A DNA stretch of 64,000 nt from Akkermansiaceae bacterium (GTDB lineage Bacteria; Verrucomicrobiota; Verrucomicrobiia; Verrucomicrobiales; Akkermansiaceae). The stretch is from positions 1 to 64,000 of the forward strand of contig CAIVSK010000096.1 in assembly GCA_903908495.1 (NCBI GenBank), given 5' to 3'. A program made the position numbers and the translations under genes. The notes beneath the pieces are model-generated. The model did no database searches. It had not been told where the DNA came from and saw only the letters and a list, made by a program, of their open reading frames with translations. Below, piece by piece: positions 10,510 through 23,450 of the stretch (the stretch's first letter is position 1; each line of letters begins with the position of its first letter).

Positions 10510-13500
10510 ATGAAGCCAAAATCGACAAACTCACGGTATTTTTCCCGGTTCCAAGTTGCCATGAACGGGATGGCGAACTTCCTTCCCGCGGGGCGATGGG
10601 CGATGTGCCTCGCGGCGACGCTGCAGCCGCTATCGGCGCACATTGCCGCCACCTGGAACGGCGGCAGCGGTTCCTGGACGGATGCGACCCAGTGGAGCAG
10701 TGGCCCGGCCTATCCGCTCAACGGCCAGCCGGCCGCGGGCGATACCTACGCGGTGGCACTTGCCGGCGGCAATGCCATTCGCAACGCGCCCATCACCATC
10801 GCGACGATGAATCTGGCCGGCGGGACCATCAGCGGCAACTCGGCCTTGACAGTGACCGGCGCGATGAGCTGGAGCGGCGGGATGGTGCAGGACGGCGACT
10901 TGCTCTGCAATGGCGGACTGGCCATCACCGGCAACGCCCGGCTCAGCGGCTCGGGAGCGGAACTGATTCTGGCCGGCGGCCAGACCGCGTCGCTCACGGG
11001 TGCCGGCGCGCTATCGTTGGAAAATCAGGCCACGCTGACCAACCATGGCACGCTCAATGCGCGCAATAACGCCGGCATCACCGAGGCAGGTATCTTTCAA
11101 TCGACATTCACCAACGACGGCACCTTCACCCGGGACACCGCGAGCGGGACCTTCACGGTGGGCGTCACGCAGTTTGGCAACTCCGGGACACTCAACCTGA
11201 ACAGTGGCACGCTGGATCTGCTGCACGGCATCACCAACAGCGGGGCCATCCAGATCGCGGCCGGCGCGACGCTGAAAACCAGCAACGCCTCGATCTTCAA
11301 TGCGGGCAGTTCGTTCAGCGGCAGCGGTCAATGGCTGGTTCAAAATGATGAGCAGCACCTGCATCTATCGCTCGTCGTGCCTAACAGCATAACCCTCGGA
11401 TCGACCGCACAGCTCACCCTCTACGACGGTCATACCCTCACCCTCAACGGAGCGCTGGCCTGGGCGGGCGGCACGCTCGGGCGCGAATCGAATTTCTTTG
11501 GCGGCACCCACGGCTATGTCACCCTCAACGGCGGGGCGAGAATCGCCCATGGGTCGAGGTTCTATGGGCTGACCCTCACCAACACCCCGGCCAGCAGCGT
11601 GGTGATGGACAACGCAGCGGCCCTGTGGTTCGGCGGCGACGCGATTTTCCAGAATGCCGGAAACTTCACCCTGCAGGGCGTCAACGCGGGTCTGATTGCC
11701 GACGATGCCACCAGTGGCAATGTCTTCACTAACAGCGGGATCTTCACCAGCAACGCCGACGTGTTGAACACGGCCACCATCCGCGTCGGCTTTGCCAATT
11801 CGGGCACCGTAAACGCCACCCATGGGGACACCGCCATCTTAGCCGGCGGCTCATCGACGGGCACCTTTCAGGTTGCCGCGGGAGCCCAATTGCGCTGGGC
11901 TGACGGCGACTACATCTTCCACGCCGGCACCGCATTCACGGGTGACGGGTCCTTCCAATTCGACGGCGGCAGCCAGACGATTGACGCGCCGCTGACCACC
12001 GCCAGCAGCCTCGAGATCGCCAGTTCTTTAACCCTGCCGGCTGGCGTCACCCTCACCAGCAACGGCACCCTGTCCGTATCCGGCAGCCTCAGCGGCGGCG
12101 GCACCCTGCTGGCCAATGGCAGCCTGAGTCTCAGCGGCGGCATCATCGACGGCTGCAGGCTGGAAAATTCCACCACCGCCACCGCGACCCACCGCGGCCT
12201 CTTCTCCGGATATTCGTACACCCTGACCAACGGCGCGGTGCTGGCAAACAACGGGCTGTTTCTAGCAAGAGACGCAACCGGCTTCACCAACGGCAGCGGT
12301 GCCGGCAATGCCTTTGTGAATGCCGGCACCTTCACCCGCGACTCGGGCACCGGCGTCTACACCATTGCCCCCCGCTTCACCAACACGGGAGTTGTCAATG
12401 TCAACACCGGCACTCTCAAGCTCTCCGGTGGCGGCACCTCCACCGGCGGCACCTTCCAAATCGCCGCCGCGGCGAGCATCGAGGTTTCCGCCGACTACAC
12501 CTTTCAGGGTGGCAACACGACCTCCGGCGCTGGACTGTTTGTGCTGGGCAGCGCGACGGCGACCCAGCCCGTGGTCACCCATACGGTTGCGGCCGATCTG
12601 ACGGCCGCCACGCCGCTGATCCTTGGCAATACCACGCTGAACATCGCACCGGCCGCCACCTTCACTGCCACCGGGCCATGCAACATCCTGCTTGCCACCC
12701 TCGCCGGTGGCGGCACCTTGCAGGCCAATGGAGGCAGCAGCATCGGCCAACTCACCGTCGATGGCACCACCCTGCAACTCGCTGCCGGCAACGACCACTC
12801 CCATGCCTCCGGCTTCGACATCACCCTAACAAACGATGGCATTCTCGACATCTCCGGGGTCTTTCTGGCACAGGCGGACCACGGCATCAGCGTCGGCACG
12901 GGAACGGGCAACGCCATTAACAACTCGGGCTCCTTCATTCGCAACACCGGTAGCGGAACTTATACCGTCGCGGCCCCGCTCAACAACACCGGCACGGTGT
13001 CGGCGCAAAGCGGCACCTTGCTCCTCACCGGCGGCAGCGCCACCGGCGGCACCTTCGATGCCACCGGTGGCCTGCTTCAGTTCACCGGCGACTATGCCTT
13101 CAGTGGCAATTGCAGCTTCACGGGTGCTGGCACAACGGAATTCCTCGCCGGCACCAATACCATCACCGGACCGCTCACTGCGGCTTGCTCCATCGCTCTC
13201 TCCGGTGGCGCGCTCGCCGTGCAGAGCGGGCAATCCGTCACTTCGACCGGTCCGCTGATCTTCGGCACCGCGACGACCGCCGGCTACATCACGGGCGGCG
13301 GCACCTATCAAGCCAACGGCGGCATCACCGTGAACAGCGGCTATGTCGACGCTGCCACCCTCACCAACGGCGCCCTGCAAACCGCCACCCACAACAGCGG
13401 CCCGCTGGTGCTCATGCTGACAAACGGTGGCGCGTTCAACAATGCCGGCACATTTCTGGCCCAGACCGACAGCGGAATAACCGGCGACGGGGCGGCGGCA

Positions 13501-16500
13501 AACATCGTGCGCAATTCCGGCAGCTTTACCCGCAACACCGGACTGGCGACCTATCAAATCGACGTGCCGTTCGAAAACACCGCCACCGTCAACATCGAGA
13601 CCGGCACCCTGGCGTTCACCAAGGCCGTCACCGCTCCCGGCGGCACCTTTCACACCAGCGCTGGTGCCAGCTTGAGCTTCGTCGCCGGATCTTCTTTCGA
13701 TTCCACCACCGCTTTCACCGGTCCCGGCAGTGTCATGCTCAACGGCGGCAGCCATACCTTCGCAACCTCCACCGCCAGCGACAGCGTCATCGCGCTGACC
13801 ACCGGCGAAGTCAGAGTGCCGACGGGCGTATCATTTGACTCCAACGGGTGTTTCCACTGGGCCGGCGGCACCATCTCCGGCGGCGGCACGCTCAACGCCA
13901 ATGGCGGCCTCGATATCACTAACAGCGTCGTCCTGGCTGATTCCACGCTCATGCTGGCAAGCGGCCAGACGGCACAACAAACCGGCAGCGGCCACCTCGT
14001 GCTCAACGGCGGCGCCACCTTGATCAATGCCGGCACCTATCATGCCAGCAACGACTCCGGCATCAGTCCGGGCAGCGGCGCGGGCGCTTCGCTGAACAAT
14101 TCCGGCAGCTGGGTGCGCGATACGGGCAGCGGGATTTTCACCGTCGCCGTGCCATTCCACAACAGCGGGTCCGTCAATGTGCAGAGCGGCACGCTCACGT
14201 TGAGCGGGGGCGGCAGCAGCAGCGGCATCTATCAGGTGGCGGCGGATCTCGATCTCATCATTGCAGGCGACACCAGCTATGCCGGTGACAGCGCCTTCAC
14301 CGGCAGCGGCCGGGTGACATTCCAGAGCGGCGTCCAGACGGTGGCCGATTCGATGCCGGCATCGGCGCTTGTCAACTTGGCCGGCGGCACCCTGAGCATC
14401 GCTGCGGACCAGGTGTTTCTATCCGCAGGCGGGTTCCATTGGAGTGGCGGCACGGTCAGCGGCGGCGGCACCCTGCAAAACACCGGCACCCTGCAGATCA
14501 CCGGCACCGCGCTGCCCCTGGACGGTGCCACCTTGCAGACCGCCGCGACGGGAGTTTCCTCGATCGAAGGCGCGGGGTCGCTGCTGCTCAGCAACGCGGC
14601 CGTCTTGAACAACGAGGGGACTTTCTCCCTGCTCAACAACAATGCGCTGAGCGCCGGCGACGCGAGTGCCGTGCGCTTCGACAATTCGGGAACAGTGAAC
14701 CGCGATAATCAGACCGGCACGTTCTCTATCAACGTGCCGTTCAACCACAGCGGCACCGTCAATCTCAATACCGGCGCCTTGTCGCTCAATGGCGGTGGCA
14801 CCGCGCACGACTCCGCCATCCACACGCAGCCGGGCACCACCTTGAACATCGGCACCAGCTATACCTTTGCTGACAATAACGTCATCACCGGCGGCGGCGC
14901 GGTCAATTTCGCCAGCGGCGTGCTCCATGTGACCGGCTCCCTCAGCTCCGACGCACCGTTCAACTGGAGCGGTGGCTCGCTGGACGGCGGTGGAACCTTC
15001 ACCGTCAAGGGCGGATTGGCAATCACCCCGGCATCAGGCAATGTCACGATTGTCGGCACGACGCTGGAGAACGCGCCTGGCAGCGAGGCAATCATCGGCG
15101 GCAGCGGCTACTGCCTGCTCCAGGACGGCGCCACGTTTCGCAACGCGGGCACCGCCAGATTGCAGGGGAATTATGGCTTCGTCGATAGCGGAGGCGGCGC
15201 CAACGCCATCTATAACTCGGGCACCCTGATCCGCGATGCTGGCGGCGGCGGCTATGCAATCACGCTGCCCATTAACAACACCGGCACGATCCGCTCCACC
15301 TCAGGCTATCTCAGCATCACCAACGGCGGTTCATCCGGTACGGCAAACGGTGTGCTGGAAACCAATGGCGGCAGCATCTATCTGAATGGCGGCAGCTACG
15401 AGTTCAACGGCGGCGCGCTCACCGGATCCGACTTTGTGATCCTCGCCGCGGGCCAGGCGCTGGTCAGCGCGGACACCGGCGCCACCAGCGGGCCGGCTAC
15501 TGGCGGCTTCGGCATCGCGGGTGGCACCTTCGGAGGCAACGCCATGCTGTCGGTGGACCACGGCTATTTGTCCACCGGAACCATGACGGGAACCGCGGTG
15601 TTGCGCTTCTCCGGAGTCTCGACCAAACCGAATTACACCATGTTGAATATGGCGGGTGCCACCATCCGCAATGACGGCGTGTTCAATCAATCGTATCAGG
15701 CCAACTATGACATGGACGTCGACGCTGATGCCGGTGGCGGCAGCATCCAGAACAACGGGGATTGGAACCTCACCAACAGCAATGTCTTCTATAACACCTA
15801 TGGCGAAGGCGTCATCAACAATGCCGGCAATTTCAACCAGGCCGGCGGCGGCAATGTTGTCTACGCGGCGTTTCACAATCAGGCCGGCGGCACAGTCCAC
15901 GCCACCGCAGGGTACATCCTGTTGCAGGGCGGCGGATCCCAGGCGATTGGGGGCACACTCAATGCCAATGGCGGCAGCATCTACTTCAATGGCGGAACCC
16001 ATGTCTTGCACGGCGGTGCATTCGCGGGAGCTGACTTCACCTATGACTCTGCGGGAACAGTCGTGATCGCAGCCAATGTCGGCGCGAACAGCGGACCCGC
16101 GACCGGCGGCTTCGGCATCGCAGGCGGCACTCTCAGGGGCACGGCAATCGTCTCGGCCGATCACGGGTATTTTTCCAACGGCACCATCGCTGATTCCGTG
16201 CGGCTCCGCCTCACCGGAGCATCCAGCAAGGAAAACTATTCCATGCTCAGCATGTCCGGCGGAACCCTCCAAAACGATGGCTCCTACAGCCAATCGTACC
16301 AAGCCAATTATGACATGGACTCTGACGGTGATGCGGGTGGCGGCAGCATCCAGAACAACGGGGATTGGACCCTCACCAACAGCAGTATCTTCTATAACAC
16401 CTATGGCGAGGGAGTCGTCAACAATGCCGGCAACTTCAACCAGGCCGGTGGCGGCAATGTTATCTACGCGGCCTTCCACAATCAGGCGGGCGGCACGCTC

Positions 16501-19257
16501 AATGCCACCGCAGGGTACATCCAGTTGCAGGGCGGCGGGTCGCTTGCGGCGGGCGGCACGCTCAATGCCAACGGCGGCAGCATCTATTTCAACGGCGGAA
16601 CCCATGTCTTGCACGGAGGATCCTTAGCCGGGGCCGACTTCACCTATGACTCCGCAGGAACGGTTGTTGTCGCCGCCAATGTTGGCGCAAGCAGCGGACC
16701 CGCCACCGGCGGCTTCGGCATCGCCGGTGGCACGCTCAGGGGCTCGGCGATCGTCTCGGCGGATCACGGGTATTTTTCCAGCGGCACCATCGCTGATTCC
16801 GTCCTGCTGCGCCTCACCGGAACTTCCAGCAAGGAGAATTATTCCATGCTCAACATGGTCGGCGGCACCCTTGAAAATGACGGTATCTTCAATCAGTCCT
16901 ATCAAGCCAACTATGACCTCGATGCGGACAATGACGCCGGCGGCGGCACGATCCAGAACAATGGCTCATGGAATCTGACCAACTCCAGCATCTTGTACAA
17001 CAGTTATGGCGGTGGCGTCGTCAATAACGCAGGCAACTTCAAACAACTGGGCGGCTACAACTACATCTATGCGACGTTCAACAATCAAGCCACGGGCGTG
17101 CTCACCGCCAACGGGGGCGCTGCCTACCTCCGCGGCGGCGGATCGCAGGACGCAGGCGGGACGCTCAACGCTGACGGCGGCAGCATCTATTTTCACGGGG
17201 GCACGCATGAACTGAACGGCGGCATACTCACGGGCAGCACCTTCAGCTATGTTGCCTCCGGGCTGGTCAATATCAATCAGGCCGTCGGGAACTCCAGCGG
17301 CAGCGCCACGGGCGGGTTCGGGGTGTCGGGCGGCACTCTTGGCGGCTCGGCCATGCTCTCGGCGGATCACGGGTACTTCTCCTCCGGCACCATCCAGGGG
17401 ACAGCGGTGTTGCGCTTCACCGGCGAGTCGGGCAAGGAGAATTACACCACCATCGGGATGGCGGGCGGCACCATCCGGAATGACGGCACCTTCAGCCAGA
17501 ACTATCAAGGCAACTTCGATCTGGACACCGATTCAGACGCGGGCGGCGGCACCATTCAGAACAACGGGTCCTGGAATTTGACCAACTCCAACACCTTCTC
17601 CAACAGCTATGGCAGCGGCGTCATCAACAATGCCGGCAACTTCAACCAACTGGGCGGCTACAACTACATCTATGCGACGTTCAACAATCAAGCCACGGGC
17701 GTGCTCACCGCCAACGCGGGCGCTGTCTACCTCCTCGGTGGCGGTTCGCAAGCCGACGGCGGGACGCTCAACGCCAATGGCGGCAGCATCTATTTTCACG
17801 GGGGCACCCATGAACTGAACGGCGGCATACTCACGGGCAGCACCTTCAGCTATGTTGCCTCCGGGCTGGTCAATATCAATCACAACGTGGGCAACCTCAG
17901 CGGCAGCGCCACGGGTGGGTTCGGGGTGTCGGGCGGCACTCTTGGCGGCTCGGCCATGCTCTCGGCGGATCACGGGTACTTCGCCTCCGGCACCATCCAG
18001 GGGACGGCGGTGTTGCGCTTCACCGGCGAGTCGGGCAAGGAGAATTACACCACCCTCGGGATGGCGGGCGGCACGATCCAGAATGACGGCACCTTCAGCC
18101 AGAACTATCAAGGCAACTTCGATCTGGATACCGACCCCGCCGCCGGCGGCGGCACCATCGAAAACAACGGCAGCTGGAATCTCACCAACAGCAACGTGTT
18201 CTCCAATAGTTACGGCGGCGGACTTATCAGGAATGGCGGCAACTTCAACCAGTTGGGTGGCACCAATTACATCTATGCCGCGGTGGTCAACAGCGGCACA
18301 CTCACCTCGAATGGGGGCACCGTGTATCTGCTGGGTGGCTCGGTTCATAGCGGTGCCCTCATCTCCAACAGTGGCATCGTGCTGGGTGCCGGCACCCACA
18401 CCCTGGCCGGCAGCTCGGCCTGGCTCGGCGGCAGCGGAGAATTGTATGGCAACCTCACGATTTCCGACGGGGCTAAGATCTCGCCCGGCAACTCCGTGGG
18501 GACACTGACGCTCTATGGCGAGGTCGATTTTGTGACCGGTGGTGCCACTCCGGCCTGTCGCATCGAGCTGGCGGGCCCCGGCTCCAACGATCAAATCAAC
18601 CTTGCTGACGGCGCTGCCCTCGACCTTGGGACCAGCCTGACGGACTTGCAGGTCTCACTTCTCTATGCCCCGGCGTTTGGCGATAGCTATCGCATCGTCG
18701 GCGGCAGCGGCCATTACAGCGGCACGTTCCGCAACCTGCCTGGCAGTGGATCGATCATCTTCGCGGCGTACGGCGGGCAATCCTATGCCCTGCAAGTCGC
18801 CTACTCGGGCGGTGGCAGGTACGTCGATCTGACCGTCCTGAGTCCCTATCAAGCCTGGGCCTATGGCAAGGGCCTGCAGGGAGCAGACGCGGAGTTTGAC
18901 GCGGATCCGGATCACGATGGCATCGCCAATGGCATGGAGTTTGTGATTGGCGGAGAGCCCAACCCGGCCAACCCCGGGTCGAATTCCCAAAGCCTGCTGC
19001 CGCAAGTCAGCGTCGATGAAAGCGGCCTGCGGGTGGTCTATCGGCGCAATCAAAACGCGCTCTATCTGAACCCGGGAATCGTCTACGATGGCAGCCTGGA
19101 CGCGGCTTGGACCCCCGCCCAAGCGGGCGTCAACGGGGTGACCATTGACGTCGTCAGCGATGGATTCGGCTCGTCCATCGACCGCGTGGAGGTCAGCATC
19201 CCCCGCAGCAATGAGGTTGCCGGCAGACTCTTTGCACGCCTGCAGGCAACCCAGTAA
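10510..19257 (+). CDS. Giant secreted beta-repeat protein (2915 residues)
   Basis: The N-terminus has a charged leader and a hydrophobic segment ending LQPLSAHIAA, then the mature start TWNGGSGSWTDATQW, typical of autotransporter-associated beta-strand proteins. Almost the whole protein is Gly/Asn/Thr/Ser-rich, with strands like GGGTLNANGG and NSGTFTRDTGSGTYTV, predicting a very long right-handed beta-helix. Landmark motifs recur about every 200 residues, and residues 1616-2620 are five near-identical 201-residue units. No C-terminal autotransporter barrel is seen. It ends with an acidic loop DPDHDGIANGMEFVIGGEPN (about 2799) followed by a beta-rich tail, a module shared with two other secreted proteins here. 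Probably a surface or adhesive protein. Its stop lies 4 bases from the convergent cytochrome gene. Confidence 0.85.
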   Translation: MKPKSTNSRYFSRFQVAMNGMANFLPAGRWAMCLAATLQPLSAHIAATWNGGSGSWTDATQWSSGPAYPLNGQPAAGDTYAVALAGGNAIRNAPITIATMNLAGGTISGNSALTVTGAMSWSGGMVQDGDLLCNGGLAITGNARLSGSGAELILAGGQTASLTGAGALSLENQATLTNHGTLNARNNAGITEAGIFQSTFTNDGTFTRDTASGTFTVGVTQFGNSGTLNLNSGTLDLLHGITNSGAIQIAAGATLKTSNASIFNAGSSFSGSGQWLVQNDEQHLHLSLVVPNSITLGSTAQLTLYDGHTLTLNGALAWAGGTLGRESNFFGGTHGYVTLNGGARIAHGSRFYGLTLTNTPASSVVMDNAAALWFGGDAIFQNAGNFTLQGVNAGLIADDATSGNVFTNSGIFTSNADVLNTATIRVGFANSGTVNATHGDTAILAGGSSTGTFQVAAGAQLRWADGDYIFHAGTAFTGDGSFQFDGGSQTIDAPLTTASSLEIASSLTLPAGVTLTSNGTLSVSGSLSGGGTLLANGSLSLSGGIIDGCRLENSTTATATHRGLFSGYSYTLTNGAVLANNGLFLARDATGFTNGSGAGNAFVNAGTFTRDSGTGVYTIAPRFTNTGVVNVNTGTLKLSGGGTSTGGTFQIAAAASIEVSADYTFQGGNTTSGAGLFVLGSATATQPVVTHTVAADLTAATPLILGNTTLNIAPAATFTATGPCNILLATLAGGGTLQANGGSSIGQLTVDGTTLQLAAGNDHSHASGFDITLTNDGILDISGVFLAQADHGISVGTGTGNAINNSGSFIRNTGSGTYTVAAPLNNTGTVSAQSGTLLLTGGSATGGTFDATGGLLQFTGDYAFSGNCSFTGAGTTEFLAGTNTITGPLTAACSIALSGGALAVQSGQSVTSTGPLIFGTATTAGYITGGGTYQANGGITVNSGYVDAATLTNGALQTATHNSGPLVLMLTNGGAFNNAGTFLAQTDSGITGDGAAANIVRNSGSFTRNTGLATYQIDVPFENTATVNIETGTLAFTKAVTAPGGTFHTSAGASLSFVAGSSFDSTTAFTGPGSVMLNGGSHTFATSTASDSVIALTTGEVRVPTGVSFDSNGCFHWAGGTISGGGTLNANGGLDITNSVVLADSTLMLASGQTAQQTGSGHLVLNGGATLINAGTYHASNDSGISPGSGAGASLNNSGSWVRDTGSGIFTVAVPFHNSGSVNVQSGTLTLSGGGSSSGIYQVAADLDLIIAGDTSYAGDSAFTGSGRVTFQSGVQTVADSMPASALVNLAGGTLSIAADQVFLSAGGFHWSGGTVSGGGTLQNTGTLQITGTALPLDGATLQTAATGVSSIEGAGSLLLSNAAVLNNEGTFSLLNNNALSAGDASAVRFDNSGTVNRDNQTGTFSINVPFNHSGTVNLNTGALSLNGGGTAHDSAIHTQPGTTLNIGTSYTFADNNVITGGGAVNFASGVLHVTGSLSSDAPFNWSGGSLDGGGTFTVKGGLAITPASGNVTIVGTTLENAPGSEAIIGGSGYCLLQDGATFRNAGTARLQGNYGFVDSGGGANAIYNSGTLIRDAGGGGYAITLPINNTGTIRSTSGYLSITNGGSSGTANGVLETNGGSIYLNGGSYEFNGGALTGSDFVILAAGQALVSADTGATSGPATGGFGIAGGTFGGNAMLSVDHGYLSTGTMTGTAVLRFSGVSTKPNYTMLNMAGATIRNDGVFNQSYQANYDMDVDADAGGGSIQNNGDWNLTNSNVFYNTYGEGVINNAGNFNQAGGGNVVYAAFHNQAGGTVHATAGYILLQGGGSQAIGGTLNANGGSIYFNGGTHVLHGGAFAGADFTYDSAGTVVIAANVGANSGPATGGFGIAGGTLRGTAIVSADHGYFSNGTIADSVRLRLTGASSKENYSMLSMSGGTLQNDGSYSQSYQANYDMDSDGDAGGGSIQNNGDWTLTNSSIFYNTYGEGVVNNAGNFNQAGGGNVIYAAFHNQAGGTLNATAGYIQLQGGGSLAAGGTLNANGGSIYFNGGTHVLHGGSLAGADFTYDSAGTVVVAANVGASSGPATGGFGIAGGTLRGSAIVSADHGYFSSGTIADSVLLRLTGTSSKENYSMLNMVGGTLENDGIFNQSYQANYDLDADNDAGGGTIQNNGSWNLTNSSILYNSYGGGVVNNAGNFKQLGGYNYIYATFNNQATGVLTANGGAAYLRGGGSQDAGGTLNADGGSIYFHGGTHELNGGILTGSTFSYVASGLVNINQAVGNSSGSATGGFGVSGGTLGGSAMLSADHGYFSSGTIQGTAVLRFTGESGKENYTTIGMAGGTIRNDGTFSQNYQGNFDLDTDSDAGGGTIQNNGSWNLTNSNTFSNSYGSGVINNAGNFNQLGGYNYIYATFNNQATGVLTANAGAVYLLGGGSQADGGTLNANGGSIYFHGGTHELNGGILTGSTFSYVASGLVNINHNVGNLSGSATGGFGVSGGTLGGSAMLSADHGYFASGTIQGTAVLRFTGESGKENYTTLGMAGGTIQNDGTFSQNYQGNFDLDTDPAAGGGTIENNGSWNLTNSNVFSNSYGGGLIRNGGNFNQLGGTNYIYAAVVNSGTLTSNGGTVYLLGGSVHSGALISNSGIVLGAGTHTLAGSSAWLGGSGELYGNLTISDGAKISPGNSVGTLTLYGEVDFVTGGATPACRIELAGPGSNDQINLADGAALDLGTSLTDLQVSLLYAPAFGDSYRIVGGSGHYSGTFRNLPGSGSIIFAAYGGQSYALQVAYSGGGRYVDLTVLSPYQAWAYGKGLQGADAEFDADPDHDGIANGMEFVIGGEPNPANPGSNSQSLLPQVSVDESGLRVVYRRNQNALYLNPGIVYDGSLDAAWTPAQAGVNGVTIDVVSDGFGSSIDRVEVSIPRSNEVAGRLFARLQATQ
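15355..18369 (+). repeat. Five tandem 603-bp coding repeats
   Basis: Equivalent codons of the motif encoding LNANGGSIYF begin at 15355, 15958, 16561, 17164 and 17767, each exactly 603 bases apart (201 codons, no indels). Units 2-3 and units 4-5 are most alike, suggesting recent duplication or gene conversion. The last unit diverges from about 18290. They lie within the giant beta-repeat gene. Confidence 0.9.
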
Positions 19258-19261
19258 CTAC

Positions 19262-21433
19262 TCAATGCGCCAGGCGGGTGACCATCGCATAGATGATGAG
19301 AACCAGCAGCACCAAGCCGAGGCCGAAGAAGCCAAAGCCGATCGGGCGGGCGATTTTCTTCCAACGGTCCCACTCGTCGCGCACCCGGTACTGGTCGAGC
19401 TTGCCGGTGGCCACCAGCCGGTCATACCAGCTTTTGCGCTCGTGGAGCATTTCGGTTTTCGAGATGCGGCCCGAGAAGATCACGTTGTCCATCGGGAACT
19501 TTTCCAACCTGAAATGGGTGTTGAAGAAGTGCACCGTGAAGATGAATCCGGCAGCTAACAGAGCCTCGTCGGAGTGCACGATCAACGCGATGTTGATGAC
19601 CCAGCCGGGCAGGAATGCGGTGAAAAACTGCGGGAACCACATCACCATACCGGACACGCCGATGGCAAAGATGCCCCAGAAAACCGCAAAATAGTCGAAT
19701 TTCTCCCAATACGTCCAGCGGTCGAACTGCGGCTTGGGGCCTTTGCCGAAAAACCACTTCTGATGGGCGACAAAGTCACGGAGGTCCTGCAGGGTGGGCA
19801 CCATCGAATCGGGGCCGAACACCGCGCCGAATGCCCGCTTGAGTTCCCATTTGCCGGTGGCCGGATTGCGCATGGCACCACGATTCCGCCACGACGTGGT
19901 GACCAGGTCAAACAGGTGCAGAGCGAAGTAGAGGAAGGTGACCAGGGCCCCCACGCGATGCAAGGCGCGCGCGGTTTGGGCTCCTCCGATGATATCAAAC
20001 AGGGTTTGCGCCCAGCTGGTATAGTAGAACTTCAGCGGCATCCCGGTAATCACTAACAAGAGGAAGCTGGTGACCACCAGGAAGTGCAGGAAGCGATCGA
20101 AGGGCGTGAAGCGGGTGAACCATTCGGTGTCGTTCTGGGTATCGAATTTCGTCTCGCGATACGCCTTGGAGTCATGCCGGTAAACCCACACCGAGCGGGC
20201 GAGCCACAGCAAGGTGTGGCCGCCAAAGAACGCAAACACGCACAGCAGCAGTCCGGTCATCAGCACGAAGGTCAGGTGCAGCGCGGGGTATTTCTTGCCG
20301 TCCAGCGGATTGGCATGCGGCACATACTCGGTGAAGCCGGCCGTGGCACCGGGGTGACATTTGGTGCAGGTGGCGCGGATGTTCTGTTTGGACAACTGTG
20401 ATTCCGGATTGGAGACCGGCTGGATGTTGTGATCGCCATGGCAATCGAAACAGGCCGCCACATCGCTGGCGATGTTGGGCTGGCCCAGGGCCATCGCCTT
20501 GCCGTGATAGGTGTCGCGGTAGTGCTTGAGGCTTTCCTCGTGGCACTTGCCGCAGCGATTATCGCTGGCTTGTTTGAAATGGGCGGTGTTGGGGTTTTCG
20601 ATTTCATGCGCCGAGTGGCAATCGTTGCAGACCGGCCCGCGGGAGTCGCCTTTGGCCAGCAACTGGCCGTGGATGCTCTTGTTATAGGTTTCTTCGATGC
20701 CGAGGTGGCACTTGCCGCATGTCTTGGCCAGATTGGCTTTGTTGACCGGCGAGCTGCGGTCCACGCTGCGCTTGATGTCGTGAACGCCGTGGCAATCGTT
20801 GCACGAGGGAGCCACCACCAGCCCCATTTTTTCCATCCCGCGGCCGTGGATGCTCTCTTGATAATGAGCGGCGACATCGGGGAAGCGCATGCGGTATTCC
20901 TTGTTGATGCCGGCATTGTCGTGGCATTTGGCGCAGGTGCGCGACAGGTTGAGCTTGAACGTCGGAGAGTTGGGGTTCTTCGGCGAGAGCATGTCATGGG
21001 TGCCGTGGCAACTGGTGCAGGAGGCGGCCCCGGACGATCCCATCGATCGGCTGATGCCGTGGATGCTGGTTTGATAGATATCTGCCTCCTCCTTGTGGCA
21101 GGTGGCACAATCCACCGGCTTGGGCAGCTTGGCATCGTCGGGATGCTCACCGGTCAGATCGACGTGGCACTCGGCACAGGCGAGCTTGGCGTGGACCGAG
21201 GACTGGCGGATCTTCTCGTCGACAAACAACGTCGAGGTCTTGCCACCGGGCAGATCCTTGGTTAGATCCTTGTCGCTGTGGCACTCCAGACACTTGTCAT
21301 TGGGAATCATCTCCGCGGCGGGCTTGATGAGCGCTGCGGCAGTCTCGGCCGGGGCGGCACACGCGATCGCGGGCCAGGCCATCAGGCAGAGGATGCCGAG
21401 CCAGCGGGCGGCGGAGTGGGATGGGTGGCGCAT
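19262..21433 (-). CDS. Undecaheme cytochrome c fused to cytochrome b membrane domain (CbcL-like)
   Basis: A 723-residue protein with signal peptide MRHPSHSAARWLGILCLMAW. An exported region (about 40-385) has eleven CXXCH sites: CLECH, CAECH, CATCH, CTSCH, CAKCH, CNDCH, CGKCH, CNDCH, CGKCH, CFDCH and CTKCH. A membrane region (about 390-723) with at least five helices and histidines in FLHFLVVTSF, LHRVGALV, LHLFDLV and TVHFFNTHF fits a di-heme cytochrome b. This architecture matches Geobacter CbcL-type quinol:cytochrome c proteins. It likely passes electrons between menaquinol and the periplasm; the direction is not provable. The start at 21433 places the signal peptide correctly. It is a divergent paralogue of the gene at 21789. 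Confidence 0.85.
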   Translation of the reverse strand: MRHPSHSAARWLGILCLMAWPAIACAAPAETAAALIKPAAEMIPNDKCLECHSDKDLTKDLPGGKTSTLFVDEKIRQSSVHAKLACAECHVDLTGEHPDDAKLPKPVDCATCHKEEADIYQTSIHGISRSMGSSGAASCTSCHGTHDMLSPKNPNSPTFKLNLSRTCAKCHDNAGINKEYRMRFPDVAAHYQESIHGRGMEKMGLVVAPSCNDCHGVHDIKRSVDRSSPVNKANLAKTCGKCHLGIEETYNKSIHGQLLAKGDSRGPVCNDCHSAHEIENPNTAHFKQASDNRCGKCHEESLKHYRDTYHGKAMALGQPNIASDVAACFDCHGDHNIQPVSNPESQLSKQNIRATCTKCHPGATAGFTEYVPHANPLDGKKYPALHLTFVLMTGLLLCVFAFFGGHTLLWLARSVWVYRHDSKAYRETKFDTQNDTEWFTRFTPFDRFLHFLVVTSFLLLVITGMPLKFYYTSWAQTLFDIIGGAQTARALHRVGALVTFLYFALHLFDLVTTSWRNRGAMRNPATGKWELKRAFGAVFGPDSMVPTLQDLRDFVAHQKWFFGKGPKPQFDRWTYWEKFDYFAVFWGIFAIGVSGMVMWFPQFFTAFLPGWVINIALIVHSDEALLAAGFIFTVHFFNTHFRLEKFPMDNVIFSGRISKTEMLHERKSWYDRLVATGKLDQYRVRDEWDRWKKIARPIGFGFFGLGLVLLVLIIYAMVTRLAH

Positions 21434-21532
21434 ATGAGTGGGGTGGGATGGTGAGCGGGGTGGAGCGGAGGGCCGGGGGCAAGCGAGTTGCCGGCGGGTG
21501 CCACAGCACGGTGGAGGGTTACACAAGGCGCG

Positions 21533-21560
21533 ACGTTATGGATTTGGACCTGTCCGGCAA
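21533..21560 (-). promoter_or_regulatory. Candidate promoter for the 11-heme cytochrome gene
   Basis: On the minus strand TTGCCG (21555-21560) and TAACGT (21533-21538) are 16 bases apart, about 100 bases before the start codon at 21433. Pattern-based. Confidence 0.4.
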
Positions 21561-21643
21561 GGTTGTAAATTCCGCAGGAGCCCCAATCGCGAGGGATGCG
21601 CAATGATTGCAAAGGGATGCGCAGGGAGCGGGCACATTGGGTC

Positions 21644-21671
21644 TTGCTGGAGGCATGCGCGCGGCTATCAT
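21644..21671 (+). promoter_or_regulatory. Candidate promoter for the 9-heme cytochrome gene
   Basis: TTGCTG (21644-21649) and TATCAT (21666-21671) are 16 bases apart, 117 bases before the ATG at 21789. The 355-base divergent region (21434-21788) otherwise holds no gene. I see no clear FNR- or ArcA-type palindrome in it. Confidence 0.4.
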
Positions 21672-21788
21672 GGGTGTTACAGAAATGCGCTGTGCTGCTT
21701 GTGACCTTGGGGTTAGGGCGGCTTGCCTGCGGCGTTTTAGCCGGTGGCAAACGGTGCGGATCTGGTTGTCCAAGGATATTACTATCTT

Positions 21789-23450
21789 ATGAAACACCAT
21801 CTCCTAACGCTGCTTTCCGCGGTTTTTTGGTTTGCCTGTCCAGTGGAGGCAGCTGGGGAACGGATGCCCAACGACAAGTGCCTGGAATGCCACGAAGACA
21901 AGGACTTGACCAAGGATCTACCCGGCGGCAAGACCCAGTCGATATATGTGGACGCGGCGAAGTTAAAGGACTCGGTGCATGCCAAGACGCAGTGTGCGGA
22001 GTGCCACAAGGATCTAACCATGGAGCATCCGGATGATGCCAAGGCGGCCAAGCCGGTGGACTGCGCCGCGTGTCATGACAAGCAATCGAAGAGTTTCGGA
22101 GCGAGCGTGCACGGCCTCGCGTTGGACAAGGGCAATGCCACGGCGGCCGGTTGCAAGGATTGCCACGGCAACCACGAGGTGTTTTCCCGCAACTCGCCGC
22201 GCTCCAAAATTCACGTCACCAATCTGGAACAAACCTGCGGCCAATGTCACACCGCCGAGGCCGATGACGTGGCGGCAAGCGTACACGGCCAGGCGCGCAG
22301 CAAGGGCGAAGGCGCCACCTGCATCGACTGCCACTCGGAGCACAAGATTGTCGGGCTGAAGGGGCCGGCGGCCTCGTTCCAGACGGCGGAGACGTGCAGC
22401 AAGTGCCACGCCAGCGAACGCATCAACAGCCGCTTCGGCATGCCCAACGACCGGGTCAAGACCTTCTTCGAGAGTTACCACGGGCTGGCCGCGACCGGCG
22501 GATCGACGATGGCGGCCAATTGCGCGAGTTGCCACGGGTTTCACAAGATCCTGCGTTCCAGCAATCAGGAGTCGACCATCCACCCGTCGCACCTGATGCA
22601 AACCTGCGGCAAATGCCACCCCGGGGCGTCGCAGAGTTTTGTCGGCGGCAAGATTCACGCCGACGAGGCCGGCAGCAACGAGACGGGGATGGTGGTGAGC
22701 CGCTGGGTGCGCAACATCTATGTGCTGCTCATCGTGCTGACTGTGCTTCTGCTAGGCACGCACAACGGGCTGGCCTGGTGGCGCAAGGTGGCGGCACGGC
22801 GGCGCGCGCAGGGCGAACTGGTCATGCGCATGGACCGCGGCCAGCGGGCCCAGCATTTCGTGCTGATGGCCAGTTTCATCCTGCTGGCGGTGACCGGCTT
22901 TGCGTTGAAGTTTCCCAACACGTGGTACGCGCATCTGCTGGGCACCGAGGAGATCCGCCGTTGGATCCACCGGATCGCCGGGGTGGTGCTCATCGGCGGC
23001 GGGCTCTATCACATCTATTATGTCCTGTTCACCGCCACCGGCCGCAAGTTGCTGCGCGACCTGTGGCCGCGCTGGCAGGACGCCCGCGATGTGGCCACCA
23101 ACGCCGCCCACCTGACCACCGGCGCGCCCAAGGCCCGCTTCGGGCGCTTCGGCTATCCCGAGAAACTCGAGTACTGGGCGGTGGTGTGGGGCACCGTGGT
23201 GATGGGTGCCACCGGGCTGGCGATCTGGTTCAAGATCGACGTCACCCATTGGCTGCCGCGCTGGATCATCGACGTGGCGGTGACCATTCATTACTACGAG
23301 GCGATCCTCGCCTGCCTGGCGATTGTGATCTGGCACTTCTATCATGTCATGTTCGACCCCGACGTCTATCCGATGAATTTCGCCTGGCTCGACGGCAAGG
23401 TGGCCAGGAAATGGCACGAGGAGGAGCATCCGCTGGAGGAGGAGGAATAG
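21789..23450 (+). CDS. Nonaheme cytochrome c fused to cytochrome b membrane domain (CbcL-like)
   Basis: A 553-residue protein with signal peptide MKHHLLTLLSAVFWFACPVEA and nine CXXCH sites (CLECH, CAECH, CAACH, CKDCH, CGQCH, CIDCH, CSKCH, CASCH, CGKCH) in about 25-285. A membrane b-type domain (about 305-553) carries histidines in QHFVLMASF, IHRIAGVV, GLYHIYYVL and WHFYHVMF. Nine c hemes plus a cytochrome b domain is the layout of Geobacter CbcL, an inner-membrane quinol oxidase used in extracellular electron transfer. The N-terminal 80 residues (PNDKCLECHEDKDLTKDLPG and onward) closely match the 11-heme neighbour, so the two arose by duplication. The acidic tail EEEHPLEEEE is unusual. ATG 21789 is chosen for the signal peptide. 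Confidence 0.85.
   Translation: MKHHLLTLLSAVFWFACPVEAAGERMPNDKCLECHEDKDLTKDLPGGKTQSIYVDAAKLKDSVHAKTQCAECHKDLTMEHPDDAKAAKPVDCAACHDKQSKSFGASVHGLALDKGNATAAGCKDCHGNHEVFSRNSPRSKIHVTNLEQTCGQCHTAEADDVAASVHGQARSKGEGATCIDCHSEHKIVGLKGPAASFQTAETCSKCHASERINSRFGMPNDRVKTFFESYHGLAATGGSTMAANCASCHGFHKILRSSNQESTIHPSHLMQTCGKCHPGASQSFVGGKIHADEAGSNETGMVVSRWVRNIYVLLIVLTVLLLGTHNGLAWWRKVAARRRAQGELVMRMDRGQRAQHFVLMASFILLAVTGFALKFPNTWYAHLLGTEEIRRWIHRIAGVVLIGGGLYHIYYVLFTATGRKLLRDLWPRWQDARDVATNAAHLTTGAPKARFGRFGYPEKLEYWAVVWGTVVMGATGLAIWFKIDVTHWLPRWIIDVAVTIHYYEAILACLAIVIWHFYHVMFDPDVYPMNFAWLDGKVARKWHEEEHPLEEEE

What the first reader, a model, noticed from the sequence alone, without database searches (positions are those of the whole stretch)
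19262..23450. Divergent pair of multiheme c / cytochrome b fusions resembling CbcL
Sequence shows two divergent genes, each encoding a signal peptide, many CXXCH sites (11 and 9) and a membrane part with several histidines. Their first 80 mature residues are nearly the same, so this is a duplication. The 9-heme version has the layout of Geobacter CbcL, which moves electrons from menaquinol to the periplasm for extracellular respiration. Such genes are not a textbook feature of Verrucomicrobiota-type genomes. With menD in the same window, a menaquinol-driven electron outlet is plausible. Two paralogues with different heme counts may work at different redox potentials or in opposite directions.
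Basis: partly seen in the sequence, partly recalled or inferred. Interest (0 to 1): 0.8.

Follow-up and report, generated by a model that had tools for sequence, protein, structure and literature searches.

The report
Ancient paired membrane electron-outlet cytochromes
Two neighbouring genes in a freshwater verrucomicrobial genome encode partner membrane cytochromes that probably take electrons from the quinone pool and pass them towards an outer-membrane electron conduit; they look like an old, conserved pair rather than a recent duplication, and only one of them is a close relative of the Geobacter protein CbcL.

Summary
In detail: two divergent multihaem-c/cytochrome-b fusions with 11 and 9 CXXCH. 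Both membrane parts match FdnI and keep its four histidine positions; the 9-haem protein has exactly nine further invariant periplasmic histidines (28 of 28 rows). Electron export is supported by context: the genome has a porin-cytochrome cluster with an ImcH-like gene on another contig; in a relative, conduit, ImcH-like gene and both fusions form one 11-kb cluster; the ImcH-like gene is in all 22 genomes, of 337 sampled, that have either fusion.

Two inferences fail. The 11-haem protein, not the 9-haem one, is the CbcL relative (57% against 30% b-domain identity, six against five helices). And it is no local duplication: the b domains form two deep clades, side by side in other phyla too, while only the first ~90 residues were homogenised between partners, in several lineages.

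CbcL homologues and porin-cytochromes were already reported in this phylum; my searches showed no report of the pair.

The parts
19262..21433 (-). 'P' partner: 11-haem c / dihaem b fusion, 723 aa from ATG at 21433 (longest ORF starts TTG 21526); CbcL lineage
   Evidence: ORF and 11 CXXCH; PF01292 and c7/c3 families; P clade with Desulfuromonadia CbcL-like proteins
21041..21307 (-). N-terminal module of P (about residues 43-131; 3 CXXCH), alike by lineage with that of N
19391..20134 (-). cytochrome b domain of P (about residues 434-681); putative b-haem ligands H450, H492, H620, H635
   Evidence: phmmer to 1kqf_C; Foldseek TMt 0.75; VIA Z 13.4, 3.2 A over 206 residues; His conservation
19268..19372 (-). 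sixth, C-terminal membrane helix of P (residues 688-722), also seen in the CbcL-like proteins examined and absent from N
   Evidence: model helices; hydropathy of six CbcL-like proteins
21434..21788 (.). 355-bp divergent promoter region
21595..21623 (+). conserved element GATGCGCA-NN-GATTGCAAAG-N-GATGCGCA; recognisable in all 7 aligned intergenic regions, exact over its first 19 positions in 5 of them; found once in this genome at up to 3 mismatches
21789..23450 (+). 'N' partner: 9-haem c / dihaem b fusion, 553 aa from ATG at 21789 (longest ORF starts GTG 21744); separate subfamily
   Evidence: ORF and 9 CXXCH; N clade
21861..22133 (+). N-terminal module of N (about residues 25-115; 3 CXXCH), alike by lineage with that of P
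22806..23447 (+). cytochrome b domain of N (about residues 340-553); putative b-haem ligands H356, H394, H501, H516 (28 of 28 rows)
   Evidence: phmmer to 1kqf_C; Foldseek TMt 0.75; VIA Z 15.1, 3.4 A over 196 residues
3032..4645 (-). menD, menaquinone synthesis (likely source of the quinol)
   Evidence: TIGR00173 266.5 bits, cut-off 244.2

Best explanation
The two genes encode partner inner-membrane quinol:periplasmic-cytochrome oxidoreductases of one extracellular-respiration module. Each has a periplasmic chain of bis-histidine c haems and an FdnI-type dihaem b domain with a quinone site. Menaquinol is oxidised at the b domains, electrons cross to the c chains, and from there (directly or through a small periplasmic carrier) reach a DmsE/MtrA-like haem protein inside an outer-membrane barrel and an acceptor outside, perhaps humic quinones or Fe(III). 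The 11-haem protein (P) belongs to the CbcL lineage; the 9-haem protein (N) is a separate, deep subfamily. They work together, as a heteromer or as two entry points onto the same periplasmic acceptor, which would explain why only their first three-haem module is kept alike. Shown: domains, haem and histidine counts, fold match, two deep clades, linkage and co-occurrence, lineage-wise likeness of the N-terminal module, presence of conduit and ImcH-like genes in the genome. Inferred: bis-histidine ligation, quinone binding, direction of flow, physical partnership, the acceptor, and that this genome's unlinked conduit is the one they feed.
For: FdnI is the only Foldseek hit at E<=0.001 for both models. 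Histidine sets fit the haem counts. The pair is in 8 of 59 near relatives (own included), always 11+9 haems. A conduit barrel is in those 8 plus 1 of the other 51, the ImcH-like gene in those 8 plus 2 of 51. In 337 phylum genomes: N in 18, P in 19, both in 15, side by side in 12 of these, spread over 7 family codes (Fisher p 7e-20, uncorrected for kinship); ImcH-like in 22 of 22 with N or P and 6 of 315 without. DmsE-like, barrel, ImcH-like, N (13 haems) and P stand in one cluster in L241; DmsE-like, ImcH-like, N and P in L242; DmsE-like, barrel, N and ImcH-like in L246. ImcH-like, P, N in tandem in L065, L066, L070. N and P side by side beyond the phylum in L075, L079, L082. N-terminal module: within-genome identity 0.527 against 0.438, 0 of 10,000 shuffles; b domain no difference, 4810 of 10,000; the module tree needs 4 changes of type (AU p 0.008 against one N clade), the b-domain tree 1. 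CbcL's periplasmic domain reduces PpcA in vitro (PMC9129911, abstract and passages).
Against: No protein data. 7 of the 22 genomes with either have only one (N only 3, P only 4); in 3 of the 15 with both they are not side by side (one 2.3 Mb apart, two on different contigs). Of 20 named loci with the 9-haem N, 5 lack a P beside it, and in 4 of those genomes I found no P at all. In the Desulfuromonadia sample 84 of 98 genomes have a P-type protein and 1 an N type, none both, so neither needs the other everywhere. In the window's genome the conduit and ImcH-like gene are on another contig and the pair's upstream element is not found there. DmsE-like hits are in only 12 of the 22 genomes with N or P, and only 1 of 337 genomes (not ours) passes that family's cut-off. 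In the module test own P ranks first in only 10 of 21 genomes and lies below the average of the others in L065 and G196. Silent codons show no within-genome excess, so gene conversion is not shown; shared selection could do the same. Models are middling (pLDDT 73-74, pTM 0.48 and 0.59).
Confidence: 0.62

Rival explanations
1. The two are independent enzymes used at different redox potentials, as ImcH, CbcL and CbcBA are in Geobacter; linkage reflects co-inheritance only.
For: Geobacter uses separate quinol oxidases by potential (PMC12307469 passages). 7 of 22 genomes hold one type only. The pair is divergently transcribed here, so the two can be expressed apart. An ImcH-like third outlet is in all 22.
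Against: Co-occurrence and adjacency in 12 of 15 genomes over 7 family codes, adjacency in other phyla, and lineage-wise likeness of one module only suggest a shared partner or joint work.
Confidence: 0.35
2. The system runs inwards: electrons from outside donors such as Fe(II) reduce quinone through N and/or P, as proposed for MtoC.
For: FdnI itself reduces menaquinone (recalled). CbcL/MtrH/MtoC homologues occur in Fe(III) reducers and Fe(II) oxidisers, and no feature tells direction (PMC6295460, passages and section 10).
Against: The ImcH-like gene goes with them in 22 of 22 genomes, and ImcH has been implicated only in quinol oxidation (PMC6295460 passages). He et al. found such conduits, among the MAGs of their two lakes, only in those from the humic bog, with homologues elsewhere, and argue for export (PMC5615132 passages).
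Confidence: 0.12
3. The pair feeds periplasmic reductases or detoxifying enzymes, not the outside.
For: 10 of the 22 genomes with N or P have no DmsE-like hit at my threshold. In L070 the cluster also holds a 4Fe-4S protein and an NrfD protein.
Against: Barrel and DmsE-like genes in the same cluster in L241 and L246; a conduit barrel in 8 of 8 pair-bearing near relatives, own included.
Confidence: 0.15

Closest known systems
CbcL of Geobacter sulfurreducens (GSU0274) and Desulfuromonadia CbcL-like proteins
   Same: P: joins them in the b-domain tree, 57% mean b-domain identity to 11 CbcL-like rows, multihaem N-terminus, six membrane helices including a C-terminal one.
   Different: P has 11 rather than 9 haems and lives beside N. 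N has 9 haems, but 30% identity, five helices and its own clade. GSU0274 itself was not compared; I used unnamed class members and Malonomonas rubra, taken as CbcL by their features.
MtrH / MtoC
   Same: Counted with CbcL as one broad family of multihaem-c/cytochrome-b quinone enzymes, sometimes in clusters with conduit genes (PMC6295460, section 10).
   Different: No MtrH or MtoC sequence was obtained, so whether N is close to them is untested.
ImcH
   Same: The companion gene on contig C186 has three N-terminal membrane helices, one CX3CH and 6 CX2CH and matches NapC/NirT, the features given for ImcH.
   Different: Not compared with a Geobacter ImcH sequence. Here the ImcH-like gene can stand next to barrel and DmsE-like genes (L241), while PMC6295460 saw no mtrAB/mtoAB beside imcH.
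Verrucomicrobial porin-multihaem cytochrome clusters (He et al. 2017, PMC5615132)
   Same: C186 holds a barrel next to a DmsE-family-like haem protein.
   Different: The passages I read give the inner-membrane step only as a label in the model figure, 'ET in IM'; N, P and ImcH-like are candidates for it. They report eight haem sites in the periplasmic protein; the one here has 7 CXXCH. I did not compare sequences.
FdnI, cytochrome b subunit of E. coli formate dehydrogenase N (1kqf chain C)
   Same: Fold and all four histidine positions.
   Different: No fused c haems; takes electrons from an iron-sulphur subunit (recalled).

Membership tests
CbcL lineage (P, 11-haem protein) | N-terminal multihaem c domain fused to cytochrome b | tested here: met
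CbcL lineage (P, 11-haem protein) | nine CXXCH, as in CbcL itself | tested here: not met
   11 CXXCH; the broad CbcL/MtrH/MtoC family ranges from 3 to 23 (PMC6295460), so it is filed in the lineage, not as CbcL itself
CbcL lineage (P, 11-haem protein) | six membrane helices | tested here: met
   six long helices between residues 383 and 722
CbcL lineage (P, 11-haem protein) | groups with CbcL-like proteins rather than with N | tested here: met
   set of 12 P and 11 CbcL-like rows, 100/98; a tree with CbcL outside all P types is not rejected, AU p 0.23
CbcL lineage (N, 9-haem protein) | nine CXXCH | tested here: met
CbcL lineage (N, 9-haem protein) | six membrane helices | tested here: not met
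   five long helices, no C-terminal one; four broad-family members have five (PMC6295460)
CbcL lineage (N, 9-haem protein) | sequence close to CbcL-like proteins | tested here: not met
   30% b-domain identity, own clade 100/100; N type in 1 of 98 Desulfuromonadia genomes
FdnI-type dihaem cytochrome b (both) | fold and four haem-ligand histidine positions | tested here: met
   that these four are the ligands in FdnI is recalled
Quinol oxidase of extracellular electron transfer (both) | quinol oxidation and electron transfer to periplasmic cytochromes | not testable with these tools
   needs biochemistry
ImcH (companion gene on C186) | three N-terminal helices, NapC/NirT similarity, CX3CH, 5-9 CX2CH | tested here: met
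   features from PMC6295460 passages
Porin-cytochrome conduit (companion cluster on C186) | outer-membrane barrel next to a DmsE/MtrA-type multihaem protein | tested here: inconclusive
   TIGR03508 167.1 bits, below its cut-off of 192.2; the barrel passes Porin_O_P narrowly (24.8 bits, cut-off 20.9)
MtrH/MtoC | close sequence relationship of N to MtrH or MtoC | not tested
   no sequence at hand

The most novel reading that the evidence does not exclude
N and P form one obligate heteromeric quinol:cytochrome complex, a two-subunit type of electron outlet older than its spread over several phyla. N is a new quinone-enzyme subfamily, and the two N-terminal three-haem modules are repeatedly homogenised because both must dock to the same acceptor, or to each other.
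Probability: 0.35. Interest if true: 0.8.

Novelty: new variant of a known kind. Interest (0 to 1): 0.6.

Why it matters
It offers candidates for the inner-membrane step of the porin-cytochrome conduits of Verrucomicrobiota, which the passages I read of the 2017 report leave as a label. It splits 'CbcL homologues' into two lineages that recur as a pair, so counting haems alone misassigns them. Likeness of one haem module between two deeply separate partners, renewed lineage by lineage, is an evolutionary sign of a shared interface that can be tested directly.

Tried and rejected
Recent duplication of the two genes: rejected, the b domains form two deep clades, and the mixing of types is confined to the N-terminal module. 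Haem count as guide to CbcL kinship: rejected. Recent gene conversion as proven cause: not supported, silent codons show no significant excess (N-terminal module 2093 of 10,000 shuffles, b domain 638 of 10,000). Shared operator between the pair and the C186 conduit: not found. Plasmid-borne relatives of N's b domain: none at E 1e-8. Periplasmic fold: the second look at PDB lists only weak multihaem matches (for P, the hydroxylamine oxidoreductase family, Z up to 7.8; for N, Z up to 6.3), not interpreted. PDB 28pb 'Cytochrome c' is the best sequence match to the N-terminal parts (E 1.6e-15 for N, 3.7e-12 for P); what it does was not identified. Rooting with FdnI is unsafe (its branch is flagged at length 10), so no ancestor is claimed, and spread by descent or by transfer is left open. 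AU test with CbcL outside all P types: p 0.23, not rejected. Literature searches: (one search returned no paper); the listings did not point to the pair, and I opened only PMC5615132, PMC6295460, PMC9129911 and PMC12307469, in passages or one section.

Rows dropped: from the full-length set ORFs under 555 aa, under 5 CXXCH, several cut at locus ends, and L063 (frames broken); all but 10 of the Desulfuromonadia rows L196-L235 (Malonomonas L176 stayed, labelled P there); FdnI, b-only proteins and seven long-branch rows, then thinned to 57. The seven include the N rows of Hydrogenedentota and the FCB bacterium, so their place in the N clade rests on the quick tree and the profile scores. Searches use 21 genome pairs with 9 and 11 haems, one of them (G396) unlinked; pairs with 13-, 19- or 23-haem partners were left out. 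The shuffles treat genomes as independent; the b domain of the same genomes is the control.


Full report
WHAT IS THERE. The minus-strand gene (19262-21433, 723 aa; called P here) has 11 CXXCH; the plus-strand gene (21789-23450, 553 aa; called N) has 9. Both have a signal peptide (read from sequence), c3/c7-type multihaem families and a PF01292 cytochrome b domain above its cut-off, for P only narrowly (31.1 against 30.1 bits). They align at 29% identity and are 66% identical over 80 residues at the mature N-terminus.

IS IT REAL AND CONSERVED. In 59 near relatives (own genome included) the pair is in 8, all of the window's genus, which has 37 genomes in the set. Haem counts are 11 and 9 in all 8. 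Seven have the divergent order, G023 a tandem one. A scan of named genomes gave 46 loci. Twenty carry N of the 9-haem kind (in L063 with broken frames): 19 from records named as Verrucomicrobia members and one (L077) unnamed. Fifteen of the 20 have P beside it (again counting L063). L059, L064, L068 and L083 have no P on the locus, nor did a search of their genomes show one; L077 has it on another contig. How complete those genomes are was not told.

ANATOMY. The AlphaFold models (mean pLDDT 73.4 for N, 74.3 for P) match FdnI of formate dehydrogenase N and no other PDB chain at E<=0.001; VIA gives Z 15.1 (3.4 A over 196 residues) and 13.4 (3.2 A over 206). Four histidine positions align with FdnI. 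They are H356, H394, H501, H516 in N (28 of 28 rows) and H450, H492, H620, H635 in P (18 of 18 for the first two; 17 of 18 with one gap for the others). In its periplasmic part, outside CXXCH, N has exactly nine histidines present in 28 of 28 rows, one per haem. P has eleven that fit: 8 in 18 of 18 rows, 2 in 17 with one gap, and H97 in 16; H190, H285 and H304 are less conserved (11, 15 and 13 of 18) and not counted. P has six long membrane helices, N five; the C-terminal helix is missing in N.

WHICH ONE IS CbcL-LIKE. CbcL has nine c haems and six helices (PMC9129911, abstract and passages; PMC6295460, passages). In 98 Desulfuromonadia genomes the P profile finds 85; one of these, G460, is an N type by score, leaving 84, and no genome with both. 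All 29 such sequences that I read (of 84 genomes, Malonomonas rubra included) have nine CXXCH. That these are CbcL is inferred from features; GSU0274 itself was not compared. On b domains, window P is 57% identical on average to 11 such rows and window N 30%. In the careful tree of 57 rows N is one clade (100/100), and Verrucomicrobiota P joins the CbcL-like rows (100/98). The quick tree of 104 rows, with long-branch phyla, gives the same split (N 48 rows, 95). A tree with CbcL outside all P types is not rejected (AU p 0.23), so its exact place is open.

AN OLD PAIR. N and P lie side by side also in an Ignavibacteriaceae genome (L075, where P is cut by the contig end and only its c part is seen), a Hydrogenedentota genome (L079) and an FCB-group genome (L082). 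In the Acidobacteriaceae genome of L076 a P-type c gene and b gene are separate neighbours. Whether the pair spread by descent or transfer was not tested. In 337 Verrucomicrobiota genomes N is in 18, P in 19, both in 15 (types assigned by me from the two scores), side by side in 12 of the 15 over 7 family codes. Of the other three, one has them 2.3 Mb apart and two on different contigs. Fisher p is 7e-20, uncorrected for kinship. N alone occurs in 3 genomes, P alone in 4.

THE ALIKE N-TERMINUS. In 21 genome pairs the first ~100 residues of N and P are more alike within a genome (0.527) than between genomes (0.438; 0 of 10,000 shuffles). The b domains are not (0.3235 and 0.3234; 4810 of 10,000). 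A sliding window places the effect at about residues 15-114 of N (three windows, 0 of 1000 each); one window further on is marginal (10 of 1000) and the rest lie at 68 of 1000 or more. The module's tree mixes N and P by lineage: four changes of type are forced, and a single N clade is rejected (AU p 0.008); the b-domain tree of the same rows needs one. Not every genome follows: own P ranks first for 10 of 21, and in L065 and G196 own identity is below the average of the others. Silent codons show no significant excess, so I claim lineage-wise homogenisation of the protein module, by old copying or shared selection, not recent conversion.

CONTEXT. Contig C186 of the same genome encodes a 7-haem DmsE-like protein with a lipoprotein-like start, a barrel-type outer-membrane protein and an ImcH-like protein; C315 has a second DmsE-like protein and a barrel match. 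The barrel is in the 8 pair-bearing genomes and 1 of the other 51, the ImcH-like gene in the 8 and 2 of the other 51. In the phylum sample 22 of 22 genomes with N or P have the ImcH-like gene, and 6 of the other 315 do (the G123 hit is partial). DmsE-like hits are in 12 of the 22 and 8 of the other 315, only 1 of 337 over the family's cut-off, and that not ours. In L241 (same class) the order is DmsE-like, barrel, ImcH-like, N with 13 haems, P with 11, within about 11 kb. L246 has DmsE-like, barrel, N, and ImcH-like on the other strand, without P. L242 has DmsE-like, ImcH-like, N, P with no barrel hit in my ORF pick. L065, L066 and L070 have ImcH-like, P, N in tandem.

WHAT IT MOST LIKELY DOES. 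Two quinol-oxidising outlets, probably acting together, that hand electrons to a porin-cytochrome conduit. The family logic is established: CbcL's periplasmic domain passes electrons to PpcA in vitro (PMC9129911), and Geobacter uses ImcH and CbcL at different potentials (PMC12307469, passages). Direction, partnership and acceptor are inferred.

NOVELTY. CbcL/MtrH/MtoC homologues in 15 phyla, Verrucomicrobia among them, with 3-23 haems, were counted in PMC6295460; porin-multihaem clusters in this phylum were described in PMC5615132. The searches showed no report of a two-lineage pair, its N-terminal likeness, or its cluster with ImcH-like and conduit genes; most listed papers were not opened, and supplementary tables of PMC6295460 were not readable, so its Verrucomicrobia entries may include N or P. 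Hence: a new variant of a known kind.

Noticed in passing
window 21595-21623, and the intergenic regions in L033-L038: A conserved element built of GATGCGCA / GATTGCAAAG-like units about 10-11 bp apart lies between the divergent genes; recognisable in all 7 aligned regions, found once in the genome at up to 3 mismatches. Candidate operator.
   Followed up: partly
window 10510-19257: A 2915-aa repeat-rich ORF directly next to the P gene; by eye it looks like an autotransporter-type surface protein (not searched).
   Followed up: no
L072, L073, L084: In Kryptonia and Hydrothermus records, a 17- or 16-haem N-type fusion stands near separate b-only proteins, a 9-haem c protein and 17- to 18-haem multihaem proteins; the one scanned (L072:13236-15245) has a NapC-type domain.
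   Followed up: partly
L070:1572-9731: In a Pedosphaera MAG, a tetrahaem c, a 4Fe-4S and an NrfD protein precede ImcH-like, P and N.
   Followed up: partly
G000:C315 (L041): A second DmsE-like 7-haem protein with a neighbouring barrel match on a 3.7-kb contig, suggesting a second conduit.
   Followed up: no
L082:13493-15214: A large-subunit [NiFe] hydrogenase gene close to an N-P pair in an FCB-group MAG.
   Followed up: no
L063:2828-6725: Both pair genes appear broken or short in frame in one lake MAG; sequencing error or decay not resolved.
   Followed up: no
L083: A MAG labelled Akkermansia muciniphila carries the 9-haem N type at 59% identity, without P on the locus; the species label looks doubtful.
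   Followed up: no
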